Part shown: positions 3,821 to 31,274 of the stretch, one piece after another | How positions within the stretch are numbered: position 1 is the first letter of the stretch | Layout of the letters: the number at the start of each line of letters is the position of its first letter | Source: Chloroflexota bacterium | GTDB lineage: Bacteria; Chloroflexota; UBA6077; FW602-bin22; CADDYW01 | Reading direction: 5' to 3' | DNA length: 41,882 nucleotides | Assembly (NCBI GenBank): GCA_021323915.1 | Contig: JAJPKB010000437.1 | Location: 1 to 41,882, forward strand | Position numbers and translations under genes: made by a program | The notes under the pieces: generated by a model | The model's database searches: none | What the model saw: only the letters and a program-made list of their open reading frames with translations | Told to the model about the DNA's origin: nothing

Positions 3821-4617
3821 CAGAATACGATCCTCGGATCCAGAATGATTCCCGACGCCACCAATCGGACGTACAGGTCAGCGAGCGCGACTCCGAATAG
3901 GCTGATCCAGGCGTAGAGCATATGGTGCTCATTCAGGCGCGAGACCAACCGCCAGAGTCGATAGCGAAAAGGCGATCCCTTGAAGACGTCGAGGTAACCA
4001 CCGCAGAGGTGGCGGCAGGAGTGACAAGAGAAGGTGTACAGAGTGAGCAGGGCAGAGCTGACGACCAGAACAATGGTCCCCAGGCCGATGCCGAATCTGA
4101 GACCAGACGTGGTCGGGAAGAAGAATGCGATGATCGCGTCCCACCAGAGGAAGACCAGGACGACAACGGCGAAATAGAAAAAGTAGCGGTGGAGGTTTTG
4201 GAGCACCCAGGGAAAGCGCGTCTCGCCCTGATAGGACGGCCGCGCGTCGCGAATCATGCAGGCCGGCGGCGACCAGAAAAACGAGCGGTAGTAGGCCTTG
4301 CGATAGTAGTAGCAGGTCACACGGAAGCCGAGCGGAAACGCGAGGACGAGGATCGCCGGGGAAAGGTTCCACCACGAGCCGATAATCGGAAGCGTAACGT
4401 GCACGCAGTTGGCCGCGATGCAGGGCGAGTAGAACGGCGAAAGATAGGGATCAGCGTAATAGTTGGCATTTTGGAGTGCCGCCCAGGTCGAATAGACGAC
4501 GAAAGCCCCGAGAACGATCACGATGGTGAGCGGCTCGATCCACCACCGGTCCGTCCGCTTCGACTCCGCCGCGAGCGAACGCGGCTTAGCGGTGCTCGCA
4601 CCAGGCGCTAATGCCAT
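3820..4617 (-). CDS. sdhC: Succinate dehydrogenase membrane anchor subunit (cytochrome b-type)
   Basis: This 265-residue integral membrane protein is the first gene of the sdh operon. It has about five or six hydrophobic segments (about 28-46, 85-100, 145-165, 175-200 and 230-255). Several histidines lie near them, in NLHRYFFY, SCHSCRHLCGG and NEHHMLYAW, and are candidates for haem or quinone binding. There is no separate sdhD: a single large anchor followed by sdhA and sdhB is the order seen in the Sdh1 (Rv0249c-Rv0247c) locus of mycobacteria, and I infer the same class. The start follows a good ribosome site (GGGGGAAGATC then ATG). A small stem (GTGGGC / GCCCAC) sits in the leader just before this site and could affect translation. 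Confidence 0.88.
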   Translation of the reverse strand: MALAPGASTAKPRSLAAESKRTDRWWIEPLTIVIVLGAFVVYSTWAALQNANYYADPYLSPFYSPCIAANCVHVTLPIIGSWWNLSPAILVLAFPLGFRVTCYYYRKAYYRSFFWSPPACMIRDARPSYQGETRFPWVLQNLHRYFFYFAVVVLVFLWWDAIIAFFFPTTSGLRFGIGLGTIVLVVSSALLTLYTFSCHSCRHLCGGYLDVFKGSPFRYRLWRLVSRLNEHHMLYAWISLFGVALADLYVRLVASGIILDPRIVF

Positions 4618-4691
4618 GATCTTCCCCCTCGTGGGCCCGCTGGCGAGCCCACAAAATTTGGCGACTGGGTTTCCTCATCCGACCTTGCGCC

Positions 4692-5195
4692 CTATCTATC
4701 CGTATACGGCTCGTAACGTTCCTCGGAGGCCGGTACTACCTGCGGATTACGTAGCATCAGCCGGACACAGGCGTTCCACCGGAGCAGCACGTCGTCGTTG
4801 CCGGGCGGGCGGAGCAGCTCCGCCTTTTCATACCAGCTCATCGCTTGCTCTAAGAGATCGTACGCCATGTGACCGGCGCCAAGCATGCCCTGGCGAAGCA
4901 CGGCCTTGGCACGACGCTCGCAGATGATCCCGCTGTAATAGGCTCGCTCATATTCGTCGTGGAGGCGAGACAGCACCTCTCGCGCCCGCTGGACCGCTCC
5001 GGGCAAACCTTGCTCGAACTGATCGGTAAGAGCTAAGAGGAGGCCGACGAGCGCCTCCTGGTTGTCCGGGGAGATCGCGAGCACGTCGAGGTAGATGTTC
5101 TCGGCTTCCCAGGGTTGGCCAAGGAGGCGATATCGCTCCCCCTTGGAGAGGGCGCTCGGGATGCCTTCGGGTGAGAGCTGCTTGAGGGCGACCAT
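4692..5195 (-). CDS. TPR-like helical protein of unknown role
   Basis: A 167-residue soluble protein, probably all helical. Segments such as KGERYRLLGQPWEAENIYLDVLAISPDNQEALVGLLLAL have the size and spacing of tetratricopeptide repeats, and a further one ends in YDLLEQAMSWYEKAELLRPPG. It would act as a protein-binding scaffold; no enzyme motif is visible. I chose the ATG at 5195 because GGAGAGGAGG lies 6 bases upstream; an ATG two codons earlier abuts the ribosome site and is less likely. The open frame extends further upstream but reads as non-coding there. It lies 172 bp downstream of recD2 on the same strand, so co-transcription is possible. A 10-bp palindrome CCGTATACGG (4700-4709) overlaps its last codons and sits upstream of sdhC. 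Confidence 0.7.
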   Translation of the reverse strand: MVALKQLSPEGIPSALSKGERYRLLGQPWEAENIYLDVLAISPDNQEALVGLLLALTDQFEQGLPGAVQRAREVLSRLHDEYERAYYSGIICERRAKAVLRQGMLGAGHMAYDLLEQAMSWYEKAELLRPPGNDDVLLRWNACVRLMLRNPQVVPASEERYEPYTDR

Positions 5196-5367
5196 CGCCA
5201 TCCTCCTCTCCGGCCTCGCAGGCACAATACACCGGATGCCACCTAGAGTATTGCCGGATTCTGGATTCACTTGGGCAGATTCACCATACCATACATGGCC
5301 CTGCTGTGACAAGCCGGCGATCCCGTCGAACTCTCCCCCATCAGCACTTTGCGCCGTGGCCGACGCA

Positions 5368-7904: not shown

Positions 7905-9215
7905 GTGGATCGCCTACGGGTGAGGGCACACCTCCGATCGGATTCAGGGCCGGAGCTGACACGTTTCGCACTGGACTTTGCTCCGCACGCCGGGGGTGAT
8001 CTTCTCTGGCTGGCCTACGTGCCCGATGGTCTGCGGGCCTGGTTCCGACGGTTTGCCGACTCCTGCGATCCCACCAAAGGAGTTCACCATCCCTTCCGAG
8101 TCGCACGCCTCTTTGACTCGCCCTCGCTGAGCGAGATCGAGTTTCTGGTCGGCCGGATTCGGAGTCGGGGCCAGACGGCAGGGAGAAGCGGACCTCAGCA
8201 GATAGCACGGGCCGGCCGCCCTCACCCTCTCCTAGAGAGCGAGGACATTTCAGGAGCGACACGGGCGGTGGCCGATGAGATCGACAGTGGTCGGCTGCAT
8301 GTAACGACGATCGTCGTCGACGTCCATCACCTGCCGATCCTGACCAGCCTGATTCGCCCCGAACGGACTCGCGTGCCGCTGGCGGTCGGCGGCACGCGGG
8401 AGGGATGGGACCGCTACGTCGTCCTCCGCTTACGCGCGCTGCTGACGAAGCTCCGGGAAGCAAACCTCCACTTCTTGATCACCACGCCGTTGCCCCAACG
8501 GGTCGACCGCGGACGGACGGCCCTGGAAAGCCGCCTGATCGACGCCATCGAAGCCGAGGTGGATCTATCGTTGGTCGTGGGCAGAGGCAGTCCGTCCTGG
8601 GAGCAAATCCTCCCCCTGCGCTCTCCGACGTCGTGGTGGGAGCGGCTGAACCAAACCTGCCCACGGATCGCCGACCGCGCGGTGATGGAGCGCAGCGCGT
8701 CCGCGACCTACTGGGCAGATCAGACCCAGGAGGAGTTCGCCGCGCTGGCGCAATCCCGTGGCTGGATGGTCCGGCGAGCAGCGAGCGAGGAAGACCGACG
8801 GGAGCACTGGGATTTCGAGATCGAGCGAGCGGGCGAGCGCTACCGGGTGGACGTGAAGGGACAAAGCCGGCTCCGGCGCGGCGATGCTTCGCCGCAGGAC
8901 GGTTGGCATTGGATCGAGCTACGCGGCGTCGTCGACGACGGCTGGCTCTTTGCTGGAAAAGCCGACCTGATCGCCTTCCGGACGGAAGACTCCTTCATCC
9001 TCGTCCCGCGGACCGCCCTGATCGACCACGTCCACCATCACGTCGATCCTGACGACCTCGTCTCCGACCAACCGAGCACCGAGTATCGCCTCTACCACCG
9101 GCGTGACCGGTCGGCCGTCCGGACAGCACGATCGACCGGCTCGGATCGCGGGGTGCTAACCCTGGTCCCGACCAACCGGCTGCGCATGCTGGGCTGGGCG
9201 GAATGGCCAGTCTAG
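7905..9215 (+). CDS. Unknown protein with PD-(D/E)XK nuclease-like C-terminal domain
   Basis: A 436-residue protein of no family I can name. The C-terminal part has the layout of a PD-(D/E)XK nuclease: D303 in EHWDFEI, then D316-V-K318 in YRVDVKGQSR, followed by WIELRG and KADLIAF strands. The first about 240 residues contain a Walker-B-like strand (VTTIVVDVHHL), then LREANLHFLITTPLPQ and AEVDLSLVVGRG. This reads like the second half of a RecA/DnaB-type fold, but no Walker A loop is visible, so ATP binding is doubtful. I chose GTG 7905 because AAGGGAAG precedes it and upstream residues look non-coding; GTG 7920 is possible. Divergence from recD2 suggests, but does not prove, a link to DNA repair or defence. 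Confidence 0.65.
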   Translation: MDRLRVRAHLRSDSGPELTRFALDFAPHAGGDLLWLAYVPDGLRAWFRRFADSCDPTKGVHHPFRVARLFDSPSLSEIEFLVGRIRSRGQTAGRSGPQQIARAGRPHPLLESEDISGATRAVADEIDSGRLHVTTIVVDVHHLPILTSLIRPERTRVPLAVGGTREGWDRYVVLRLRALLTKLREANLHFLITTPLPQRVDRGRTALESRLIDAIEAEVDLSLVVGRGSPSWEQILPLRSPTSWWERLNQTCPRIADRAVMERSASATYWADQTQEEFAALAQSRGWMVRRAASEEDRREHWDFEIERAGERYRVDVKGQSRLRRGDASPQDGWHWIELRGVVDDGWLFAGKADLIAFRTEDSFILVPRTALIDHVHHHVDPDDLVSDQPSTEYRLYHRRDRSAVRTARSTGSDRGVLTLVPTNRLRMLGWAEWPV

Positions 9216-9409
9216 TGGCCGTGGAGAGGCCACCGCGTCAAGGTAGCCAGGTGCTCCGTGTCTTAGCCCTTGCACAATACGATATACTAGATTCACCTGA
9301 CTCGCGTCAATCGCCGTCCGGCCTGTGTTGTTCTCACCCGCCAGACGCGGTAAGGCTCGCATGGCTCATCTTCCCCGTGGCCCTGGGGAAAAGAATCAGG
9401 AGGGTGATC

Positions 9410-9742
9410 GTGCCAATCTACATCTACCAGGCCGCCTATACCGGCGAGTCCCTTGCGGCCCAGATTAAGGAACCGCAGGACCCGATCGAAGTGTCAGCGC
9501 GACCGGTCATTGAGTCTGCCGGAGGCAAGCTCCTAGCCGGAGGATTCAGCTTCGGCGAGTATGATATTGCGGTCGTCTACGAGGCGCCCGACGACACGAG
9601 CGCGGCGGCGGTGGCGGTGGCCGTCGCCGCCGGAGGGGCGATCAAGTCGGCAAAGACGACGAAGCTCCTCAGTGGAGCCGAGTGGGTCCAGGTCCTGCGC
9701 AAAGCGCCATCGGTTAGCCGCGCCTACCGCCCTGCCCGTTGA
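9410..9742 (+). CDS. GYD domain protein
   Basis: A 110-residue protein of the GYD family (PF08734), small ferredoxin-like alpha/beta proteins whose exact role is not established. The hallmark GEYDIAVVYEAPDD is at 49-62, preceded by VIESAGGKLLAGGFSFG and followed by an alanine-rich helix. The GTG at 9410 is preferred because AGGAGG ends six bases before it; an in-frame GTG at 9404 overlaps the ribosome site. Upstream in-frame sequence does not look like protein. It stands alone, 194 bp after the nuclease-like gene. Confidence 0.85.
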   Translation: MPIYIYQAAYTGESLAAQIKEPQDPIEVSARPVIESAGGKLLAGGFSFGEYDIAVVYEAPDDTSAAAVAVAVAAGGAIKSAKTTKLLSGAEWVQVLRKAPSVSRAYRPAR

Positions 9743-9854
9743 TCGGCTGAGGGCGACCGCGTGGCATAGCTGGGGCCGGCGGCGGTGGCGGTCGTCCGAA
9801 GGGAGCACCGTGGGGTCGATAAGACAGCAATACGGTGCTGGGTTTCCGCGAGCC

Positions 9855-9990
9855 TCAATGGCTCGGTGGAGCGAACGTGGTGACGATGCCGGCGTTGTCC
9901 CGGATATGGCTCACCGGCCACGGCGTCGCCGATGCCGATAAACTTGCCGCGCGGCACCACCGCGCCAATGTCTTGACAGCGCTGAAACCC
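9855..9990 (-). pseudogene. Relic of a D-2-hydroxyacid dehydrogenase with the middle deleted
   Basis: On the minus strand the segment at 9855-9902 reads RDNAGIVTTFAPPSH and stop, closely matching the C-terminus NRADIVTRFNPPSH of the intact dehydrogenase at 15327-16370. Directly beside it, 9898-9985 reads AVVPRGKFIGIGDAVAGEPY, matching AVAPRGEFIVVGDAAAGEPY near residue 40 of the same protein. DNA identity is strong over both blocks and their order is the same as in the intact gene. About 0.85 kb of the middle is therefore missing. It is the decayed remains of a paralog lost beside the first sugar-importer operon. The fragment cannot encode an enzyme. Confidence 0.8.
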
Positions 9991-10002
9991 CAGTGCTACA
10001 CT
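9973..10002 (+). promoter_or_regulatory. Promoter of the first sugar-importer operon
   Basis: A consensus -35 TTGACA (9973-9978) and a -10 TACACT (9997-10002) are 18 bp apart. They point at the binding-protein gene starting at 10214 and would give a leader of about 200 nt. The -35 lies at the edge of the dehydrogenase relic. The -10 is inside the inverted repeat described at 9997-10037. Confidence 0.5.
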
Positions 10003-10037
10003 CCGTACAGTGTATCGACGAGTGTGTGCACGATACA
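9997..10037. promoter_or_regulatory. Overlapping inverted repeats, candidate operator
   Basis: Two inverted repeats overlap: TACACT-N6-AGTGTA (9997-10014) and TGTATCG-N13-CGATACA (10011-10037). They cover the predicted -10 and transcription start, as expected for a repressor site. Nothing further is recognisable in the rest of the gap, 10038-10213, apart from the ribosome site GGAGG at 10203-10207. Confidence 0.5.
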
Positions 10038-10213
10038 TGGCCGGTCTTTGGGTGCACCGCCGTAGCTCTTAATGGTGGGTGCGGATGCTCAATGCTATTT
10101 CGTAACTTGGGCGGTGCCGCTGATTACTGAGCTAGTCAGGCATCCCAACAAGCCCCTTGTAGATTCAAGGCATACTGGACAGCGATTTACTGACGTCGTC
10201 TTGGAGGTATGTG

Positions 10214-11596
10214 ATGGACAGACGGTGCGGGCTACTTTCGCGGCGTAACTTCCTGCACGGTGCATGTGGGGTGGCCGGGGTCACACTGCTCGCGGCCTGC
10301 TCTGCGGGACCGAGCCAGAATCCCACGGCCGCGCCAGCGGCGCCGGTAACGACCGCGACGCAAGTGTCGGCGGCGCAGTCGATTCAGCTAAAGATTGGCG
10401 GCTGGTACGATGCCGGAACGCAGAAGGTCGTCCAGCAGCAGATCTCCCTCTTCCAGAAAAAGTATCCGAACGTTAGCGTCGCGGTGGTGGTGATCACCGG
10501 GACGCTCGCGAAGGATGTGGTCCTGATCGCCAGTGGCGCTTCGCCCGACGTCTTCTGGGTGAACAATGATCAGACCGCGCCGTGGGCTTCGCGCAACGCG
10601 CTGCGTCCTCTCGACTCCTACATCAAGACGGACCAGGTCGACATGAACGATCAATTCGACGTCGGCAAGGTCTTGTACTCTTACAAAGGAGTCACCTACG
10701 CCTTGCCGGAATCGCTGGCGCCGCTGCTGATCTTCTACAACCCCAAGGCCTTTGAAGCCGCCGGCGTGAAGCCCCCTCCGTCCGATCACAACGATAAGAG
10801 CTGGACACTCGACGCGCTCATTGAAAAAGCCAAGGCTTTGACCAAGCAGTCAGGCTCCGGGCCCGCCCAGCAATACGGCTTCTTCGTCTCGACGAGCCTC
10901 CTTCGCTGGTACCCCTTCCTGTGGGACTTCGGTGGGGACATCGTCGACAATACCGAAGCCCCGACCAAGATCATCTTCGACTCGGAGCAGTCGCGCCAGG
11001 CCTTGCAATGGGTGGTCGACCTGTGGCTCAAGAACAAGGTCACCCCGACGATCGCCGAGTCGCAGAGCTTACCCTGGCAGCCGGGGTTTGAAACCGGGCG
11101 CATTGTGATGCTCGACGAAGGACCCTGGATGTGGCCGAGCTTCCAGGCGCCCACGGTGCGCAGTAAAGTCCCCTGGGAGATGGCGGCCATGCCCTACGGC
11201 CCCGCCGGAGCGTTCACCAGGATGGCAGGAAACGGCGATGGTCTATCGGTCCAGTCCAAGAATCCCGACATGGCCTGGAAGCTTTTGGAGTTCAACACGG
11301 TGGGCGATGGCCAATCGCTCGAGTGGACGCAACTGTACTCCAACGGCATCCCCGGCAAGAAGTCATTCGCCAACGACCCGCGCTGGGCCAGTTGGTTCTC
11401 CCCGAGCTCGAAGCAGACGCTGGTCCAGCTCCCGGACTACGCCCGCACGTCACCCAAGCATCCCAACTGGGCGGAGGTGCAAACCGTCCTGGCTTCCGCC
11501 CTGGATCAGATGTGGACCGGCCAGATTTCGGTCGACCAGGCGGTCAAAGACGCTCAGGTCAAGATGGAGCAAGCGCTGACCAAGGGCAGCTCCTAA
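10214..11596 (+). CDS. ABC transporter sugar-binding lipoprotein
   Basis: A 460-residue extracellular solute-binding protein of family 1 (MalE/UgpB-like), the receptor of a sugar importer. The N-terminus has a Tat-like SRRNFL motif followed by a hydrophobic stretch and a lipobox LLAAC (C29), so it should be exported and lipid-anchored. A Thr/Ala-rich linker separates this from the mature domain. Family features include the early KKYPNVSVAV block, the ALPESLAPLLIFYN segment, and a late ILDEGPWMWPSF-type hinge region. The ATG at 10214 lies six bases after GGAGG. It heads a three-gene operon with two permeases. The ligand cannot be read from sequence; the neighbouring dehydratase suggests an acid sugar or its glycoside. 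Confidence 0.9.
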   Translation: MDRRCGLLSRRNFLHGACGVAGVTLLAACSAGPSQNPTAAPAAPVTTATQVSAAQSIQLKIGGWYDAGTQKVVQQQISLFQKKYPNVSVAVVVITGTLAKDVVLIASGASPDVFWVNNDQTAPWASRNALRPLDSYIKTDQVDMNDQFDVGKVLYSYKGVTYALPESLAPLLIFYNPKAFEAAGVKPPPSDHNDKSWTLDALIEKAKALTKQSGSGPAQQYGFFVSTSLLRWYPFLWDFGGDIVDNTEAPTKIIFDSEQSRQALQWVVDLWLKNKVTPTIAESQSLPWQPGFETGRIVMLDEGPWMWPSFQAPTVRSKVPWEMAAMPYGPAGAFTRMAGNGDGLSVQSKNPDMAWKLLEFNTVGDGQSLEWTQLYSNGIPGKKSFANDPRWASWFSPSSKQTLVQLPDYARTSPKHPNWAEVQTVLASALDQMWTGQISVDQAVKDAQVKMEQALTKGSS

Positions 11597-12580: not shown

Positions 12581-13474
12581 ATGGAGCAGACCGCACCCCT
12601 CGAACGTGAACTCCCGACCCTCTTGAAGGGACACCCTCGGCTCGTTCGCGCGATCATCGGGCCGGGGCTCTGGCACGTGGTCGCCCTTGCCGTCTGCCTT
12701 ACGACGCTCGCGCCACTCGCCTGGATGATTTCCACGTCGCTGACCCAGACCGGCAACGAGTTCCAGTTTCCGCCCCAGTGGATCCCCGACCCGATCGTCT
12801 TGACCAATTACCCGGACGCGCTGACCGCCCTGCCGTTCAATCTTTTCTTTCGGAACACCCTCGTCGTCGTCGGGGTGTCGCTCCTGGGTACCCTCCTCAC
12901 GGCGTCGCTGGTGGCGTTTGCCTTTGCCCGTTTGAACTACCCGGGCCGGGATTTCTGGTTCATGGTTCTCCTGTCAACGATGATGCTGCCGAGCGCGGTG
13001 ACCTTGATCCCGCACTACGTGATCTTCAAGACCCTTGGCTGGGTTGATTCGCTTTTGCCCCTGATGGTCCCAGCCTGGTTCGGGGGGAGCCCCTTCTACA
13101 TCTTCCTGATCCGCCAGTTCTTTCTGACGATTCCGGTGGACCTCGACGAAGCGGCGAGAATCGACGGCGCCTCGACCCTCCGGATCTTCGCTCAGATCTT
13201 CCTGCCCCTGTCGCGACCGGCGATGACCGCCGTGGCCATCTTCTCGATCGTCTATCATTGGAACGACTTCCTGGAGCCGCTCATCTACCTCAATTCGACC
13301 AATAACATGACCATCTCGGTGGGTCTCACCTTATTCGAGAATCAGTATACCGGCCAGTGGAACCTGATGATGGCCGCCGGCGTGACGAGCGTGATGCCGA
13401 TCATTCTCCTGTTCATTTTTGCCCAACGTTACTTCACCCGGGGGATCGCCTTGACGGGGTTGGCCGGCCGGTGA
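12581..13474 (+). CDS. ABC sugar transporter permease, MalG type
   Basis: A 297-residue inner-membrane permease that pairs with the preceding MalF-type protein to form the channel. The EAA loop is EAARIDGASTLRIFAQIFLP, and the end, QRYFTRGIALTGLAGR, is typical of MalG-type permeases. It starts 17 bp after its partner; a GTG one codon earlier is possible. The operon ends here and meets an enolase-superfamily gene on the other strand 11 bp later. Confidence 0.9.
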   Translation: MEQTAPLERELPTLLKGHPRLVRAIIGPGLWHVVALAVCLTTLAPLAWMISTSLTQTGNEFQFPPQWIPDPIVLTNYPDALTALPFNLFFRNTLVVVGVSLLGTLLTASLVAFAFARLNYPGRDFWFMVLLSTMMLPSAVTLIPHYVIFKTLGWVDSLLPLMVPAWFGGSPFYIFLIRQFFLTIPVDLDEAARIDGASTLRIFAQIFLPLSRPAMTAVAIFSIVYHWNDFLEPLIYLNSTNNMTISVGLTLFENQYTGQWNLMMAAGVTSVMPIILLFIFAQRYFTRGIALTGLAGR

Positions 13475-13485
13475 GGCCACGGTGT

Positions 13486-14652
13486 TCAGGCCGAGACCTG
13501 GATCCGCGCGTCGGCCCGATCTCGCACCTCAGGACGGAGGCGGGTGCCGAGGCCCGGGGTCGTGGGGATCATCAGGTGTCCGTCATGGACGTCAACGTTC
13601 GGGGTGATGATCTCGTCGTAGTAGCCACGGTAGAAGGCCCGGACGGTTTCCATGATCATCACGTTGGGGCAGTTTGCGCACAGGTGGGCGCAGGCGAAGA
13701 CGTTGACCGGCCCGCTGCAGTCATGCGGCGCGATTGGTAAGTGGTAGGCCTCGGCCATCGCCGCGATCTTCTTCCCCTCGGAGATACCGCCGGTCCAGAT
13801 GATGTCCGGCATCACGATGTGGGCCGCTTTCCGCTCGAGGACCTGGCGGAAGGCGTAGCGGGTGAACAGGCGCTCCGAGACGCAGATCGGCACCCGGGTC
13901 TCCTGGACGAGCCGGGCGAGGTCGTCGACGGGGTCGGGCGTCAGCGCCTCCTCGAACCACATCACATCGTATGGTTCGAGCGCGCGGGCGATCCGAATGG
14001 CACTTGGCAGACTCCATCGGCCGTGTAATTCGATCGCGATCTCCATTTTGCTTCCCACTGCCTCGCGGATTCGACGCACCGGCTCCAAGCCCTGCGCGAC
14101 CTGCTCGGCGGTGATGAATGGACCGACGGTGAAGCGGTCGTCAGTGGTGCGTCCGGCGGCGGGAGCGGCGAGGCGATCGAACGGCCAGATCTTCATCGCG
14201 TTGATCCCCATGTCCAGCAAGCTCTGGGCAAGCTCGGCCGGTCGCTCGTGAAACGCGGTGAAGTCGTCGATAGCACCAAAGCTCGCGCAGGTATTGTAGA
14301 CCCGAATCCGGTCGCGGACTGTCCCGCCCAGCAGCTTATGGATGGGTTGCCCGGTGGCCTGACCAGCGATATCCCAGAGGGCGATGTCGAGGGCCGAGAC
14401 CGCGCGCATCTCCGCGCCGGCGTAGCCGTAGTAGTTCGTGATGTGAAAGAGGGCGTGCCAATGCCGCTCGATGTCGAGCGGATCCTCCCCGAGGAGCACC
14501 GGCGCCGCGACGTCGTGGATGACCGCGGCGACCGCCCCGGGAACGTAGAAAGTCTCGCCGAGGCCAGTCAAACCAGCGTCGGTGTGAACCTGAACCCAGA
14601 GAAGCTGGGGATGCTGGGTCAGGCGGATCGTTTCAATCTTGGTGATACGCAT
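13486..14652 (-). CDS. Enolase-superfamily (mandelate racemase/muconate lactonizing type) sugar-acid dehydratase
   Basis: A 388-residue enzyme with the N-terminal capping domain and TIM barrel of the superfamily. Metal ligands on successive barrel strands are E208 (IELHGRW), E234/E235 (WFEEAL) and E260 (VSERL). H310, in APHDCSGPV, is the likely general base or acid, and K154 (MKIW) sits at the end of strand 2. Members remove a proton next to a carboxylate and usually dehydrate aldonates. The precise substrate is not readable; a mannonate, gluconate or similar acid is plausible given the uxuA homolog at 37393. ATG 14652 follows GGGAGA at a 6-base spacing. It is convergent with the importer operon and may share its substrate. 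Confidence 0.88.
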   Translation of the reverse strand: MRITKIETIRLTQHPQLLWVQVHTDAGLTGLGETFYVPGAVAAVIHDVAAPVLLGEDPLDIERHWHALFHITNYYGYAGAEMRAVSALDIALWDIAGQATGQPIHKLLGGTVRDRIRVYNTCASFGAIDDFTAFHERPAELAQSLLDMGINAMKIWPFDRLAAPAAGRTTDDRFTVGPFITAEQVAQGLEPVRRIREAVGSKMEIAIELHGRWSLPSAIRIARALEPYDVMWFEEALTPDPVDDLARLVQETRVPICVSERLFTRYAFRQVLERKAAHIVMPDIIWTGGISEGKKIAAMAEAYHLPIAPHDCSGPVNVFACAHLCANCPNVMIMETVRAFYRGYYDEIITPNVDVHDGHLMIPTTPGLGTRLRPEVRDRADARIQVSA

Positions 14653-25350: not shown

Positions 25351-25700
25351 GTTGCCTCCTAGCATGAACGGATATGAAAGAATGCCTCTCCCCGATCTCT
25401 GAGCACGATTGGTTCCCGCGGCGCGCAAGGTAGACGGGCAAGAGGCCATCCGTTGCGATTTCGATTCTTTGTCGAGTGAAGATCTGGAAGGCGGAAGACT
25501 TTGAGCGACTCGATCGCCCGGGCAGGCGACGTCGCTGATTTTCGGCTCGCCGAGCGCGGAATTCTGAATCTACCGCTTGGCAGATGTGGCCCGGTCTATG
25601 AGACTCCCACCTCGAAGCCACCAGCGGTTTGTCGTCTCGCCCTCCGACGCGGCGCGTTCCTCTGGGCTTGAAAGATTCTTTGCTCGTCGCTGGAACTGAA
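25351..25700. other. Intergenic stretch without a recognisable gene
   Basis: About 350 bp between the small hypothetical gene and the restriction endonuclease gene. Reading frames here do not look like protein on either strand. I see no clear repeat, promoter or RNA. It must hold the endonuclease promoter unless the gene is read from far upstream. Confidence 0.4.
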
Positions 25701-26405
25701 GTGTCTGACACACCTCACAAGATCACCGTCGTTCCCTACAATCCATTGACGTCGCACCATCTTGGCGAGAGCGTCCGACGGGCGCTGCTTGAGCAGTCTT
25801 GCTACCCGCTGGGCGAGATCCCTTCGTTTGATGGCGCCGGCGTTTATGCCATCTACTGCCACGGCGGATCGCCCTACTATACGCCAATCGCCGAGCAAAA
25901 CCACGATGGCTGCAAGGCTCCCATTTATGTTGGTAAAGCGGTCCCTCCGGGATCACGAAAAGGGATCGACGTCGGCAGTGCTAGTCGGACGCTCTACCGT
26001 CGCTTGAGGGAGCACGCCGACTCCATCCGGGCAGTGTCGAACCCCGGTACGCCTGGGCACCTCGACATCGCAGATTTCCGGTGCCGTTTCCTTGTTGTCG
26101 AGGAGGTCTGGATTCCTCTCATCGAGTCGCTATCGATCACCAGCTTCAAGCCACTGTGGAATGGCTGTATTGACGGCTTCGGACACCACAACCAAGGCGC
26201 GGCGAGGCGTGGACAGCAAAGGCCGTTCTGGGATACGCTTCACCCCGGACGGGCCTGGGCTAAAATGGTCAGGCCCAATCGCTTGTCGGTTGATCAGATC
26301 GCTAAACGGTTGCAAGAGTACTACGTCGATCCGGCGGCACGGCCGAAGCGTGGCGCTCGACGAGAGCCAGACGAGAGAGACGTCGATTCGGATGCGGGCA
26401 ACTGA
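25701..26405 (+). CDS. Eco29kI-like GIY-YIG restriction endonuclease
   Basis: A 234-residue type II endonuclease of the Eco29kI family, whose members cut CCGCGG. The GIY and YIG elements are GVYAIY (Y49) and IYVGKA (Y76). The helix RLREH gives R101 and H105, the metal-binding glutamate is E142 in LIESLSITSF, and N154 ends PLWN. This set and its spacing are those of the family, including the C-terminal GFGHHNQGAARRGQQRPFWDTLHPGR signature. I chose GTG 25701 because upstream codons add residues not typical of the family. It is convergent with the methyltransferase gene, 11 bp away, forming a restriction-modification pair. The actual site cleaved here is an inference. Confidence 0.88.
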   Translation: MSDTPHKITVVPYNPLTSHHLGESVRRALLEQSCYPLGEIPSFDGAGVYAIYCHGGSPYYTPIAEQNHDGCKAPIYVGKAVPPGSRKGIDVGSASRTLYRRLREHADSIRAVSNPGTPGHLDIADFRCRFLVVEEVWIPLIESLSITSFKPLWNGCIDGFGHHNQGAARRGQQRPFWDTLHPGRAWAKMVRPNRLSVDQIAKRLQEYYVDPAARPKRGARREPDERDVDSDAGN

Positions 26406-26416
26406 GCGCTCTGCGC

Positions 26417-27862
26417 TCAAGCGGACGGCTTTTGGACGATCACGGCTGCCTCGTACAGCTCGACCGGCCTGAAAGACTTCTCACGAAGACCCGTCCCGAT
26501 GATCGACGACCCAACACGCTGGCAACGCACGACCTCCCGATGCCCGACCAACCCGAGGGATTCGCTAATCTTCACGAGCTCCTCATCGACCTTGAACTCG
26601 ATGCCCTGCAAGATGTTATTCCCTACCACAATCACTCCTGTACCGCCCGGACGCAGCAGGCGCTTCAGTTCGCGAAGGAAACGGTAGCCGTCGTTGAAGT
26701 AGGTAGCCGCGTAATTCGCCCAGCCGGCCCCACCATAGATACCCTTGTGCCGATTCAGGCCCCGCAATTCGGCAATCCGCTTGGAGAGACTGGGCATGTC
26801 AAAGTCCAGATCGATCGCCGCCGACTCGCGCACGGTCTGCCAAAACTTGCCGAAGTTTTCCTCTTCGTAGTGCGCGAGATCGCGCGACGACGAAACGAAG
26901 CCAAGCCAGAAGAGGTGGGGACGGGTATTGCGGACGTAATGATAGTTATTCAGGTAAGGGGGTGAGGTCACGACCAGGTCGACGCTACCGTCGCCAAGCC
27001 GACTGGCTCCTTCGAAGAAGCTTCCGAGGTGGAGCGAGAATTCTGGCAGCCTGGCCAACCGGCGAAGCTCCCGGGCGTAGCCGGAGATGTCATCGGCCAT
27101 GTGCACCAACTTGGTCCGAATCGTCTCAACGACCGGTGCGTTCTCCTGGAGCGGCTTGCCTGCGCCGGGACGGGTCGAGAGCGAGGGCTCGTAGGTGTAG
27201 TTCGAGAAAGAAACCATTGTCGTCGCGAACGCCAGGCGAAAGAGATCGGCGACCGGAGCTTCTTCAATCGCATCAATGTAGTCGAGACAGAGTAAAACTT
27301 TCCGTTCGACTTTCGGCGAGAAGAACGGCACCCGCGACCGGAAGCCGGTTGGCACCGTTCTCCGCGGCGTCGGAGCAGCATCGACACCGGCGATGTCAAT
27401 GGCTGCCTCGATAGGGCGAAGGGCCGTCCCAAACTCCTGAATCCGCATACGGAGTAGGTTAACATCGACCCAGGCAGCTTCCAGCTCGGCCTTTGCGGCA
27501 AGGTAGGGAAACGGATTGATCTCGAACCCGACACAGTCAACTCCGCGTCGCTGGGCCTCAATTAGAGTCGTCCCAACGCCGGCAAATGGATCCAGAACGA
27601 CAGCCCCATTCCGGCCTGGCCCCTCTGGTACGAAGCGATCGATAGCGTCACCAGCGAATTGCCAGGAAAAACCAGCGATCCAGTTAACCCAGCGGTGAAT
27701 ACGGTGTGTCTTGTTGGTAGCAAAGGCCGGATTGGACAGAATAGCGGTTCCGTACGTTCCATCGGCTTCGGCTATCTCGCCGGCCTCAGCATCGTCCTGA
27801 AGCTCAAAATCATTGTCGTCGATCAAGGTCTGCAAGGTCTCATACGCCCGATGTCGTGTCAA
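26417..27862 (-). CDS. DNA amino-methyltransferase (N4-cytosine or N6-adenine), restriction partner
   Basis: A 481-residue SAM-dependent DNA methyltransferase. Motif I is DPFAGVGTT at 91-99 followed by VGFEINPF, and the catalytic motif IV is TSPPY at 299-303. The long stretch between them may hold the target-recognition domain, which gives an alpha-like motif order. TSPPY is typical of N4-cytosine (and some N6-adenine) enzymes, not of C5-cytosine ones. The TTG at 27862 is taken as start because AGGAGA lies seven bases upstream and no ATG fits. It should protect the host DNA from the facing Eco29kI-like nuclease. The known Eco29kI system uses a C5 methylase, so this pairing is unusual. Confidence 0.88.
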   Translation of the reverse strand: MTRHRAYETLQTLIDDNDFELQDDAEAGEIAEADGTYGTAILSNPAFATNKTHRIHRWVNWIAGFSWQFAGDAIDRFVPEGPGRNGAVVLDPFAGVGTTLIEAQRRGVDCVGFEINPFPYLAAKAELEAAWVDVNLLRMRIQEFGTALRPIEAAIDIAGVDAAPTPRRTVPTGFRSRVPFFSPKVERKVLLCLDYIDAIEEAPVADLFRLAFATTMVSFSNYTYEPSLSTRPGAGKPLQENAPVVETIRTKLVHMADDISGYARELRRLARLPEFSLHLGSFFEGASRLGDGSVDLVVTSPPYLNNYHYVRNTRPHLFWLGFVSSSRDLAHYEEENFGKFWQTVRESAAIDLDFDMPSLSKRIAELRGLNRHKGIYGGAGWANYAATYFNDGYRFLRELKRLLRPGGTGVIVVGNNILQGIEFKVDEELVKISESLGLVGHREVVRCQRVGSSIIGTGLREKSFRPVELYEAAVIVQKPSA

Positions 27863-28861: not shown

Positions 28862-28891
28862 TTGACATGGAGGGATCTGCGTAACTATACT
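28862..28891 (+). promoter_or_regulatory. Strong sigma-70 promoter of the initiator module
   Basis: Perfect TTGACA (28862-28867) and TATACT (28886-28891) with an 18-bp spacer. It would start transcription near 28898, just before the wHTH gene. It is one of the best promoter matches in the window. Confidence 0.65.
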
Positions 28892-28913
28892 TCGGCCGCC
28901 GATGAGGCAGCCG

Positions 28914-29468
28914 ATGGAACAGTCACGTTCCCTGGTCACGACCCGTCAGGCAAGAAGAAGGAGGCATACTATCGACGCGATCGTCCTCCCCCGCTGCTTC
29001 GTCGATTCCCCGTTATTCCGGGAGTGGTCCGGCGATAGCCAGAAGCTCTATTTCTGGCTGCGGGCTCGGATCGGGCGCGCGGATCCGCTTGCCCCGGAAA
29101 CCTATCGCCAGCTTCTCGCCGACAATTATTTGGCCACCTTCGCGAGCGCCGAGCTGCTGATGGAGCAGGCTGTCGACTGCTCACGTAATACACTCACCAA
29201 GCTGATCCGCGAGCTGGCCGAGCGACGAGTCGCCCAGGTGCCAGCGACCCGGCCGGGCTATGTCTTTATTCTCGGTGAGCGCCAGCCCCGGCAAACGCGC
29301 TGGCTGAGCGAATCGATCACCTGTGACGTCTATTATCTCGACCAGCTCGTCGCCAGCAGTGGGACGAGCGAGCCGACAGACCGCCAGGGGTTAGCGGTCA
29401 GGGGGCAGGAATCCACAGAGGAAGGGCACGGAGACCACGTTCCCGGCCCCCCGACTCCTGCCCCCTGA
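28914..29468 (+). CDS. Winged-helix DNA-binding protein of the initiator module
   Basis: A 184-residue protein with a winged-helix fold at about 45-120 (LYFWLRARIG, LLMEQAVDCSRNTLTKLIRELAERRVAQV, PGYVFILGERQ). The C-terminus is low-complexity. It resembles the N-terminal part of replication-initiator proteins and has the same style as the 543-residue protein downstream. The ATG at 28914 (with GAGG six bases before) is in reach of the promoter at 28862. A much better ribosome site, AGAAGGAGG at 28955-28963, lies inside this frame and is followed at ideal spacing by ATC (28971), not ATG. A start at 28971 would fit the protein better, so the true start is open. No family is certain. Confidence 0.6.
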   Translation: MEQSRSLVTTRQARRRRHTIDAIVLPRCFVDSPLFREWSGDSQKLYFWLRARIGRADPLAPETYRQLLADNYLATFASAELLMEQAVDCSRNTLTKLIRELAERRVAQVPATRPGYVFILGERQPRQTRWLSESITCDVYYLDQLVASSGTSEPTDRQGLAVRGQESTEEGHGDHVPGPPTPAP

Positions 29469-29642
29469 CCGGTGTACCAGCATACGCCCATCACAAATTT
29501 TACTGCGAATGCTACCAGGCCAAAGCTGGCAGATTTCATCGCAATAATTACGAAATAACCCATGGTGGGCAAATGCTCTAGACATGATCGGCGCCAAAGT
29601 GCTATTATCGCAAAAAGCGAGATGTTTCACGGGAGGTGAGGC
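29469..29642. promoter_or_regulatory. AT-rich leader with candidate promoter
   Basis: This 174-bp gap is noticeably more AT-rich than its surroundings. A promoter TAGACA (29579-29584) and TATTAT (29603-29608), 18 bp apart, precedes the initiator-like gene. The ribosome site GGGAGGTGAGGC touches its ATG. A short dyad CCAG-N7-CTGG lies near 29513-29527. Confidence 0.45.
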
Positions 29643-31274
29643 ATGGGCGAGCCGTCGGCCGTCGGACCGGAGCATGGTGGTCCGGCCGACAACGCATCCG
29701 CGCAAGCGCGACTGGACGCACTGATCGCGCGTCTCGCTGGCGAGCATCTCGAGGTCCTCCCGTTCTATCATGATCTGCGCAACCAGATCGTTCGACCACT
29801 AAACTTACACGTCGAGACGCGCTACTTCTTCCGGCGCTGGAAGCCGATTCTCGGGCCGGTTCTGACCCTGCTCATCATGGAGCTGCGCGATCGCTGCTAC
29901 TACAACCCCCGGACCGGCGAGCGACGCGATTACTGCTGGCCCTCCCAGGAGGAGCTCGCCCGGGCGATCGGCGTCTCCACCCGCACGGTCATTCGTGCCC
30001 TCCAGGATCCCCGTGCCCAAAAGTTCATCCGGATCCAGCACCGCTACCGCTACGATCCGGTGCTCGGAAAGAAGGTCCGCACCTCCAGCGCCTATGTCGT
30101 GGCAATGGACGACCCGCTATTGCCCGAGGATGAGCCCAAGCTCACCCGCCTGGTCGCCGAGCAGATTCTGGCCCGCGAGACCACCGAGCGCCACCAGCTC
30201 CAGATCGCGAGCCCCCCCGATCTAGCTGACGCGTTGGCAGCTAGATCGAACAAGGGGAACCTCGCTGACCTTACTGACAATCTGACACCAAGCGGCGGGA
30301 CCGACCAGACTGACAATTTGTCAGACATAAATATAACTGACAACATGTCAGAAGAAGAGATCCTTTCCGGTCATGACTCTTACCAGAAGGAGAGTCTCCC
30401 GAAGTGTCGATCAACGGTTGGACGTCAGAAGCCCCCTCTATCCCCCTCTCCCCCCCAGGGAGAGAAGATTCGGCGTGATTCCCCTCCCTCGGCAGGGGAG
30501 AGGACCGGAGAGAGGGCGGCTCCGCTCGTCCCCGAGCCGGTCGTTCGGGCCTATCAGGAGGCCAACGGCCGGACGGCGACGCCACTGGAGCTCCGCCGGC
30601 TTGCGGAGTTGATCGAGCGCTTCGAGCCGGCGGCTTGCCAGGCTCAGCCGCCGGGTAGCGGCGCTGCCTGGGTTCTCGCCGCGATCATCGAGGCGGTTGA
30701 CAGCGGTAGCAGCTTCGTCGCTCCTCGCCGCATCGCCACGATCTGCGAGCGCTGGCAACGCAGGAGCCAGGGGGCACAAGGAATGGGAGGGCGGGGGTCT
30801 TGCCCCCCAGGAATCGAAGCGAAGGCGGGGGCCTCGCCCATCCTCCTGGAGGGTCTCGACGATCCCGTGTCATACTCTGACGTGTCCCAGGATCCGACTC
30901 CGGTAGAGACGGAGACGGGACGATGGCCGGTCTCTCCCCGGCTCCCGACTCCTTCATCTCCCCCGTCTCCCCTGTTTCTCGTCGACGCTGCCCGGCCGCT
31001 AACCAATCGTCAGCTTTGGCGGCTTGTCGTCGACGAGTTGACTCGGCAGATCGCCAATGCGCAAGATCGTTCCTGGCTGAGCCAGGCCGCTTTGATCGGC
31101 GAGAAGGACGACGTGCTGGTGATCGGCGCGCCCAGTCGCTTCACTCGAGATCTTCTGGAACGCCGCTTCGCCGAGCCAATCGCTCGGGCGATCGCTACCG
31201 CCCTCGGTACAGCACGGCCAATTGCCTTCGTGGTTAGTCACGAATGGCTGAGGCCGGCCGCGCGCGAGGGGTGA
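29643..31274 (+). CDS. Putative replication initiator: winged helix plus DnaA domain I-like C-terminus
   Basis: A 543-residue mosaic protein. At about 75-135 a winged helix is visible (CWPSQEELARAIGVSTRTVIRALQDP). The C-terminal 456-532 (LWRLVVDELTRQI, WLSQAALIGEKDDVLVIGAPSRFTRDLLERRF) resembles domain I of DnaA, which recruits helicase and regulators; this assignment is from pattern only. Between them is a long disordered linker with TDNL/TDNM repeats (210-238) and proline-rich inserts (266-296, 375-445). It has no ATPase module, so it is not DnaA itself. With the small wHTH gene upstream it looks like a phage- or plasmid-type initiation module now in the chromosome. The linker DNA carries iteron-like repeats. 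Some other role, such as transcription factor, is possible. Confidence 0.65.
   Translation: MGEPSAVGPEHGGPADNASAQARLDALIARLAGEHLEVLPFYHDLRNQIVRPLNLHVETRYFFRRWKPILGPVLTLLIMELRDRCYYNPRTGERRDYCWPSQEELARAIGVSTRTVIRALQDPRAQKFIRIQHRYRYDPVLGKKVRTSSAYVVAMDDPLLPEDEPKLTRLVAEQILARETTERHQLQIASPPDLADALAARSNKGNLADLTDNLTPSGGTDQTDNLSDINITDNMSEEEILSGHDSYQKESLPKCRSTVGRQKPPLSPSPPQGEKIRRDSPPSAGERTGERAAPLVPEPVVRAYQEANGRTATPLELRRLAELIERFEPAACQAQPPGSGAAWVLAAIIEAVDSGSSFVAPRRIATICERWQRRSQGAQGMGGRGSCPPGIEAKAGASPILLEGLDDPVSYSDVSQDPTPVETETGRWPVSPRLPTPSSPPSPLFLVDAARPLTNRQLWRLVVDELTRQIANAQDRSWLSQAALIGEKDDVLVIGAPSRFTRDLLERRFAEPIARAIATALGTARPIAFVVSHEWLRPAAREG
30218..30351. repeat. Iteron-like repeats and inverted repeat inside the initiator gene
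   Basis: A perfect inverted repeat with 11-bp arms (CGATCTAGCTG, 30218-30228; CAGCTAGATCG, 30238-30248) is followed by three 15-nt related repeats beginning CTGACAA at 30274, 30310 and 30337. The second is itself a dyad (CTGACAA-T-TTGTCAG), and the third nearly so. The DNA between the last two (ACATAAATATAA) is AT-rich. Such a set is typical of a binding region for an initiator. Since it also codes for TDNL/TDNM repeats, protein repetition alone is an alternative explanation for the three repeats but not for the 11-bp inverted repeat. Confidence 0.6.
30445..30503. repeat. GC-rich palindromic insert within the coding linker
   Basis: CCTCTCCCC (30445-30453) and GGGGAGAGG (30495-30503) are perfect 9-bp arms. 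The element encodes a Pro/Ser/Gly-rich linker in frame. The CCCTCTCC-type arms resemble the hairpin after sdhB (1217-1243). Confidence 0.45.

What the first reader, a model, noticed from the sequence alone, without database searches (positions are those of the whole stretch)
30218..30351. Possible replication origin inside the gene of a putative initiator (lambda O-like layout)
Within the linker-coding part of a winged-helix/DnaA-domain-I-like protein gene there is an 11-bp-arm inverted repeat, three CTGACAA repeats of which the second is a perfect dyad, and an AT-rich patch. Phage lambda has its origin iterons inside gene O, whose product binds them with its N-terminus and recruits helicase with its C-terminus. 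This protein would have the same order: N-terminal DNA binding, internal site region, C-terminal DnaA-I-like contact domain. A small wHTH gene and two good promoters complete a module of about 2.5 kb.
Basis: partly seen in the sequence, partly recalled or inferred. Interest (0 to 1): 0.75.

Follow-up and report, generated by a model that had tools for sequence, protein, structure and literature searches.

The report
Replication origin inside initiator gene
A gene for a likely replication-starting protein carries, in the stretch that encodes its floppy middle, a row of short palindromes that the protein probably binds to start DNA copying; the same arrangement recurs in plasmid-like and chromosomal genes across the bacterial phylum Chloroflexota.

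Summary

In relatives down to about 36% identity the linkers keep TGACAAWTTGTCA-type dyads far beyond synonymous-recoding expectation (p about 0.0005 each). In one relative the three dyads lie in three different reading frames, so DNA, not peptide, is conserved. In four whole genomes 7 of 9 TGNCAAWTTGNCA sites fall inside these linkers. About two-thirds of 21 linkers tested carry excess repeats, and all are AT-richer than the rest of the gene. Relatives lie beside ParA/ParB, DnaB helicase or a DnaC-like loader, and two lie on plasmids.

I read it as a RepA_N/lambda-O-like initiator whose iterons lie in its own linker-coding DNA. The family seems undescribed in the papers searched.

Not shown: binding, origin activity, or whether the window's copy is on an autonomous replicon. 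GC-skew evidence is mixed and the window's neighbours look chromosomal. The 11-bp inverted repeat is not conserved. RepA_N membership is not met by sequence. Verdict: new variant of a known kind.

The parts
29643..31274 (+). initiator-like gene, 543 aa: wHTH domain, linker, DnaD-like domain, linker, DnaA domain I
29682..30242 (+). N-terminal wHTH domain (residues 14-200), presumed dyad reader
   Evidence: HTH_36 E 3.6e-7; AF2 pLDDT mostly above 80; weak fold matches to DnaD 9a5c and pSK41 RepA NTD 4pql/4pt7
30218..30248 (.). 11-bp-arm inverted repeat; its centre TGACGCGTTGGCA (30227-30239) is a degenerate fourth dyad (4 mismatches)
   Evidence: a dyad-like site is present at the matching place in L006 (TGACATCGTGTCA, 3 mismatches) but the arm sequence is not conserved
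30274..30288 (.). dyad/iteron 1, CTGACAATCTGACAC
30310..30324 (.). dyad/iteron 2, perfect CTGACAATTTGTCAG
   Evidence: identical 13-bp core in L006, one mismatch in L002
30325..30336 (.). AT-rich patch between dyads 2 and 3 (candidate unwinding region)
   Evidence: sequence; local GC minimum
30337..30351 (.). dyad/iteron 3, CTGACAACATGTCAG
30534..30782 (+). DnaD-C-terminal-like helical domain (residues 298-380)
   Evidence: PF07261 E 0.036 (T. roseum homologue 0.0063); AF2 pLDDT 91; 2i5u DnaD domain TM 0.60/0.70, rmsd 2.3, prob 0.94
31005..31235 (+). DnaA domain I (residues 455-531)
   Evidence: PF11638 E 4.9e-8; 4tps TM 0.83-0.85
28902..29468 (+). partner wHTH-like gene (188 aa; conserved from about residue 25, nt 28974)
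   Evidence: paired upstream of the initiator in C451, G002, G293 and G251; co-occurs with the initiator in relatives
28862..28891 (+). promoter-like site TTGACA-18-TATACT ahead of the partner gene
   Evidence: 11 of 12 consensus matches
29579..29608 (+). promoter-like site TAGACA-18-TATTAT with TG ahead of the initiator gene
   Evidence: 10 of 12 consensus matches

Best explanation
The 543-aa protein is a theta-type replication initiator. Its N-terminal wHTH domain, probably as a dimer, binds three or four TGACAAWTTGTCA dyads that lie in the DNA encoding its own disordered linker. The bound array, with the adjacent AT-rich patch, forms (or derives from) the replication origin. The DnaD-like domain and DnaA domain I then recruit the replicative helicase or its loader, so that one polypeptide supplies site recognition and the helicase contact that DnaA and DnaD supply at chromosomal origins. 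The small upstream wHTH gene is a conserved partner, perhaps a regulator. Shown here: domain architecture, presence and DNA-level conservation of the dyads, AT-richness, recurrence in relatives, linkage to partition and helicase genes. Inferred: binding, origin firing, helicase recruitment, and whether the window's copy is still active.
For: The motif defined on the window recurs at up to 2 mismatches in the linkers of L006 (3 sites, 0.011 expected), L002 (3, 0.057), L007 (3, 0.029, in three different reading frames) and L008 (1, below 0.001); each p about 0.0005 against synonymous recoding. In four genomes totalling about 18.6 Mb, 7 of 9 TGNCAAWTTGNCA sites are inside these linkers and reversed controls give 0. 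Codons in the dyad block are conserved more than elsewhere (36/47 vs 409/734, Fisher p 0.003, pairs not independent), with GC3 0.50 against 0.81-0.88. Of 21 linkers tested, 14 have repeats beyond a within-linker synonymous shuffle (p 0.015 or less), and GC is lower than the rest of the gene in 21 of 21. Several Anaerolineae linkers show tandem iterons followed by an AT-rich tract. AF2 makes residues 203-291 disordered between folded domains. DnaA-I and DnaD folds are matched. ParA lies near 11 homologues or next to them, ParB-like genes near several, DnaB near 3, DnaC-like near 2. Homologues sit on plasmids of T. roseum and Leptolinea. Distribution is sporadic, 29 of 400 genomes.
Against: No binding or replication data exist. 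The window, C451, G002 and f56 copies have no ParA/ParB and lie among chromosome-type genes. GC skew is mixed: the gene is 6 kb from the minimum on the Leptolinea plasmid and within 17 kb on the G040 contig, but about 170 kb away on the T. roseum megaplasmid and not at the minimum in the window or G251. There are no DnaA boxes in the module. Seven of 21 linkers, including the window's own under the generic test, show no significant repeat excess. L008 has a single dyad.
Confidence: 0.7

Rival explanations
1. The dyads are an intragenic operator: the protein (or the partner wHTH protein) binds them to repress or road-block its own transcription, and the origin, if any, lies elsewhere.
For: Dyads are typical dimeric wHTH operators. 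No DnaA boxes, and T. roseum's copy is far from the GC-skew switch. The partner wHTH gene is conserved.
Against: No good copy of the motif lies at either promoter: within 3 mismatches of CTGACAAWTTGTCAG the window holds only the three dyads and one weak match at 30999. Arrays of three or more sites plus AT-rich DNA recur 0.6 kb inside the gene in distant relatives. Linkage to DnaB and ParA favours an origin.
Confidence: 0.14
2. The window's copy is an integrated or domesticated relic: once a plasmid-type initiator with its origin, now a chromosomal gene with another role (primosome or DnaD-like), its dyads retained for regulation or as fossils.
For: Chromosome-type neighbours in the window, G002, C451, G040 and f56. 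G000 and G002 each have a normal DnaA. C-rich palindromic inserts have entered the linker.
Against: Dyad codons remain conserved between paralogues and species, so the sites are under selection. Two full copies and a third fragment in one genome fit several replicons as well as relics.
Confidence: 0.12
3. The repeats are a by-product of a repetitive, disordered peptide (TDNLS repeats) and have no DNA-level role.
For: In window, L006 and L002 the dyads are in one frame and encode similar peptides. The generic repeat test on the window alone is not significant.
Against: L007 has the dyads in three frames with unrelated peptides. Rare AT-ending codons are used in a GC-rich gene. Genome-wide the motif is concentrated in these linkers.
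Confidence: 0.03

Closest known systems
RepA_N plasmid initiators (pSK41 Rep; also PLE RepA)
   Same: N-terminal DNA-binding domain, Rep boxes lying centrally within the rep gene in the part that encodes a dispensable linker, and a DnaD-like C-terminal domain (PMC5703833). RepA_N iterons are typically semi-palindromic (PMC7145576).
   Different: No PF06970 match in the protein or in any of 7 N-domain relatives, only weak fold matches to 4pql/4pt7. This family adds DnaA domain I and occurs in Chloroflexota.
Phage lambda O protein and ori-lambda
   Same: Iterons and an AT-rich tract in the middle of the initiator gene (PMC7466680); N-terminal binding and C-terminal helicase-loading contact (general knowledge of lambda O).
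   Different: No O-family match at strength (PHROG O-like E 0.006 or worse, covering only the HTH). Different iteron sequence. Plasmid and chromosomal contexts, no viral relative found (the one weak phage hit covers DnaA-I only). DnaD and DnaA-I domains instead of the O C-terminus.
repABC plasmids, RepC with oriV inside repC
   Same: oriV in an AT-rich region within the initiator's coding sequence; relatives here sit beside ParA/ParB (PMC3155836).
   Different: repC of p42d has no iterons; no RepC-type family was matched here.
DnaA and DnaD of the Bacillus chromosomal origin
   Same: Shares DnaA domain I and a DnaD-type domain, proteins that interact at oriC (PMC10201431).
   Different: No AAA+ or domain IV; the parts are fused in one protein with its own site-specific DNA-binding domain.

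Membership tests
RepA_N (PF06970) initiators | RepA_N N-terminal domain by sequence | tested here: not met
   No PF06970 match for the protein or 7 N-domain relatives at E up to 1; the partner 188-aa protein gives E 0.23 only
RepA_N (PF06970) initiators | N-terminal domain fold | tested here: inconclusive
   4pql and 4pt7 among top-50 fold hits at E 0.07-0.13, mixed with generic wHTH proteins
RepA_N (PF06970) initiators | Rep boxes centrally inside the rep gene, in linker DNA | tested here: met
RepA_N (PF06970) initiators | DnaD-like C-terminal domain | tested here: met
   2i5u TM 0.60/0.70; PF07261 below cut-off
Lambda O-like initiators | Iterons plus AT-rich tract inside the initiator gene | tested here: met
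Lambda O-like initiators | Sequence relationship to O | tested here: not met
   Only weak HTH-region PHROG matches (E 0.006 or worse)
Lambda O-like initiators | Initiator binds the iterons and loads helicase | not testable with these tools
   needs biochemistry
DnaA | Domain I | tested here: met
DnaA | AAA+ domain III and DNA-binding domain IV | tested here: not met
   TIGR00362 matches domain I only; domains absent
DnaD/DnaB_2 (PF07261) | DDBH2-type C-terminal domain | tested here: inconclusive
   fold match good, profile below gathering score
Plasmid replication module | Linkage to partition or helicase genes | tested here: inconclusive
   Met for many relatives, not for the window's own copy

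The most novel reading that the evidence does not exclude
In some Chloroflexota this plasmid-type initiator with in-gene iterons has been captured as the chromosome's initiator, replacing or supplementing DnaA. Leads: G040 (96% complete) has no detectable DnaA while its homologue lies near the GC-skew minimum of a 360-kb contig of housekeeping genes. In family f56 the homologue has chromosomal context in two loci (same downstream gene) while DnaA is very divergent or not found in 3 of 9 incomplete genomes.
Probability: 0.08. Interest if true: 0.88.

Novelty: new variant of a known kind. Interest (0 to 1): 0.62.

Why it matters
It gives Chloroflexota, which have few characterised replicons, a candidate family of replication initiators with a predictable origin position inside the gene. 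That could supply vectors and makes in-gene origins directly testable. It also suggests that the 'origin in the linker of the initiator' layout (lambda O, RepA_N, RepC) is a recurrent design, and shows DnaA domain I and a DnaD-type domain joined in one polypeptide with its own site reader.

Tried and rejected
Chance repeats or peptide-only repeats: rejected by synonymous-recoding tests, frame independence and genome-wide site counts. A generic palindrome count gave only weak signals and was replaced by motif and repeat tests. Phage origin: no relative in viral contigs; one weak phage hit covers DnaA-I only. GC-skew proof of origin: inconclusive. DnaA boxes: none. Genome-wide DnaA absence as proof of replacement: G040 is the only genome of its order held, so not decidable; f56 DnaA genes are divergent but several are intact. 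Paenibacillus plasmid proteins with HTH plus C-terminal DnaA-I lack in-gene iterons. No paper on Chloroflexota plasmid initiators was found.

Full report
OBSERVATION. The block is the AT-richest part of the gene. In the window the motif at up to 3 mismatches occurs four times against 0.35 expected. In the whole 5.78-Mb genome TGACAANNTGTCA occurs at six places, two in this gene and two in its paralogue on contig C451, with none for the reversed control.

PROTEIN. Profile searches give HTH_36 (residues 96-121) and DnaA_N (457-517) over their cut-offs. AlphaFold2 shows a folded domain at 14-200, disorder at 203-291, a helical domain at 298-380, a second disordered linker, and a folded domain at 455-531. 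The dyads occupy codons 192-237, at the end of the first domain and in the disordered linker. The last domain matches DnaA domain I (4tps, TM 0.83-0.85, 1.5 A). The helical domain matches the DnaD domain 2i5u (TM 0.60/0.70, rmsd 2.3, probability 0.94, although Foldseek E is only 0.65) and weakly PF07261. The N-domain is a wHTH with weak similarity to DnaD and pSK41 RepA; RepA_N is not matched by sequence.

CONSERVATION. Using the window-derived motif on independent relatives with the peptide held constant, L006, L002 and L007 each have three sites and L008 one, each at p about 0.0005. L007 (about 36% identical overall) carries its three sites in three reading frames, encoding unrelated peptides. 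Spacing between dyads is 36 and 27 bp in the window, L006 and L002. Over four genomes 7 of 9 TGNCAAWTTGNCA sites are in these linkers. Codon identity in the block is raised and GC3 is 0.50 instead of 0.81-0.88. In distant relatives the sequence of the repeats changes but repeats remain: T. roseum has TGTTGC/GCAACA-type dyads, G038 a TTTGCAA-containing iteron, Anaerolineae tandem iterons followed by AT-rich tracts. Under the strict within-linker codon shuffle 14 of 21 linkers are significant, and linker GC is lower in 21 of 21. Linker boundaries were set by eye, and the sequences are related, so these counts are not independent trials.

CONTEXT. Relatives are patchy (29 of 400 Chloroflexota genomes). 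G042 has the gene followed by ParA and ParB. G038 has it followed by a DnaC-like loader, DnaB helicase, a ParM-like protein and an FtsK/TraB-like protein (names from sequence inspection). ParA lies near the gene in 11 loci overall and DnaB in three. Homologues are on T. roseum's megaplasmid and a Leptolinea plasmid. In contrast, the window, C451, G002, G040 and f56 copies have chromosome-type neighbours. The upstream wHTH gene is paired with the initiator in the window, C451, G002, G293 and G251.

MECHANISM. The most economical reading is that the N-domain binds the in-gene dyads and the two other domains bring in helicase or loader. This matches published layouts: pSK41 Rep boxes centrally in rep with a dispensable linker and DnaD-like CTD (PMC5703833), lambda O (PMC7466680), repC (PMC3155836). 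DnaA domain I is the part of DnaA that recruits DnaD or helicase (PMC10201431). Binding and firing are not shown. GC skew is mixed: near the minimum in Leptolinea (6 kb), G040 (17 kb of 360) and G230 (about 6 kb of 93.5), not in T. roseum, G251 or the window.

NOVELTY. The layout is known; the combination of wHTH, in-gene dyads, DnaD-like domain and DnaA domain I, and its spread in Chloroflexota, appears undescribed in the held literature. I class it as a new variant of a known kind. The boldest open reading, a captured chromosomal initiator in G040 or f56, is only a lead.

Noticed in passing
G040:C56, gene at 57443-58864: A 96%-complete genome with no Bac_DnaA match at all; the initiator homologue sits near the GC-skew minimum of a 360-kb contig among serS, dcd, thyX and serA.
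   Followed up: partly
family f56 (G272, G300, G230, G181, G202, G244, G321, G328): The homologue is chromosomal with the same downstream gene in L181 and L188; DnaA in this family is unusually divergent, with no match in 3 of 9 genomes.
   Followed up: partly
window 30440-30502 and 30787-30839: C-rich palindromic repeat units (CCCCTCTCCC..GGGAGAGG; GGCGGGGGTCTTGCCCC) inserted in frame in the linkers; absent from the relatives' proteins, so probably dispersed mobile repeats.
   Followed up: no
window 25629-26405 (+) and 26417-27862 (-): Eco29kI-type restriction endonuclease (E 2.4e-58) next to an N6/N4 DNA methylase gene: a restriction-modification pair.
   Followed up: no
L105 (G000:C451) 8271-10217 and L106 (G000:C324) 13053-14204: A full paralogue and a third, contig-end-truncated homologue in the same genome, suggesting several replicons or integrated elements.
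   Followed up: partly
L135, L145, L146 linkers: A shared AT-rich tract TCTTTAACTCTTAAAACC directly follows the in-gene iterons in Anaerolineae homologues, resembling an unwinding element.
   Followed up: no
L216 (Paenibacillus lautus pAZOPL1) 4266-5252: A plasmid-borne HTH protein with C-terminal DnaA domain I near annotated replication initiators in Bacillota, similar architecture without in-gene iterons.
   Followed up: partly
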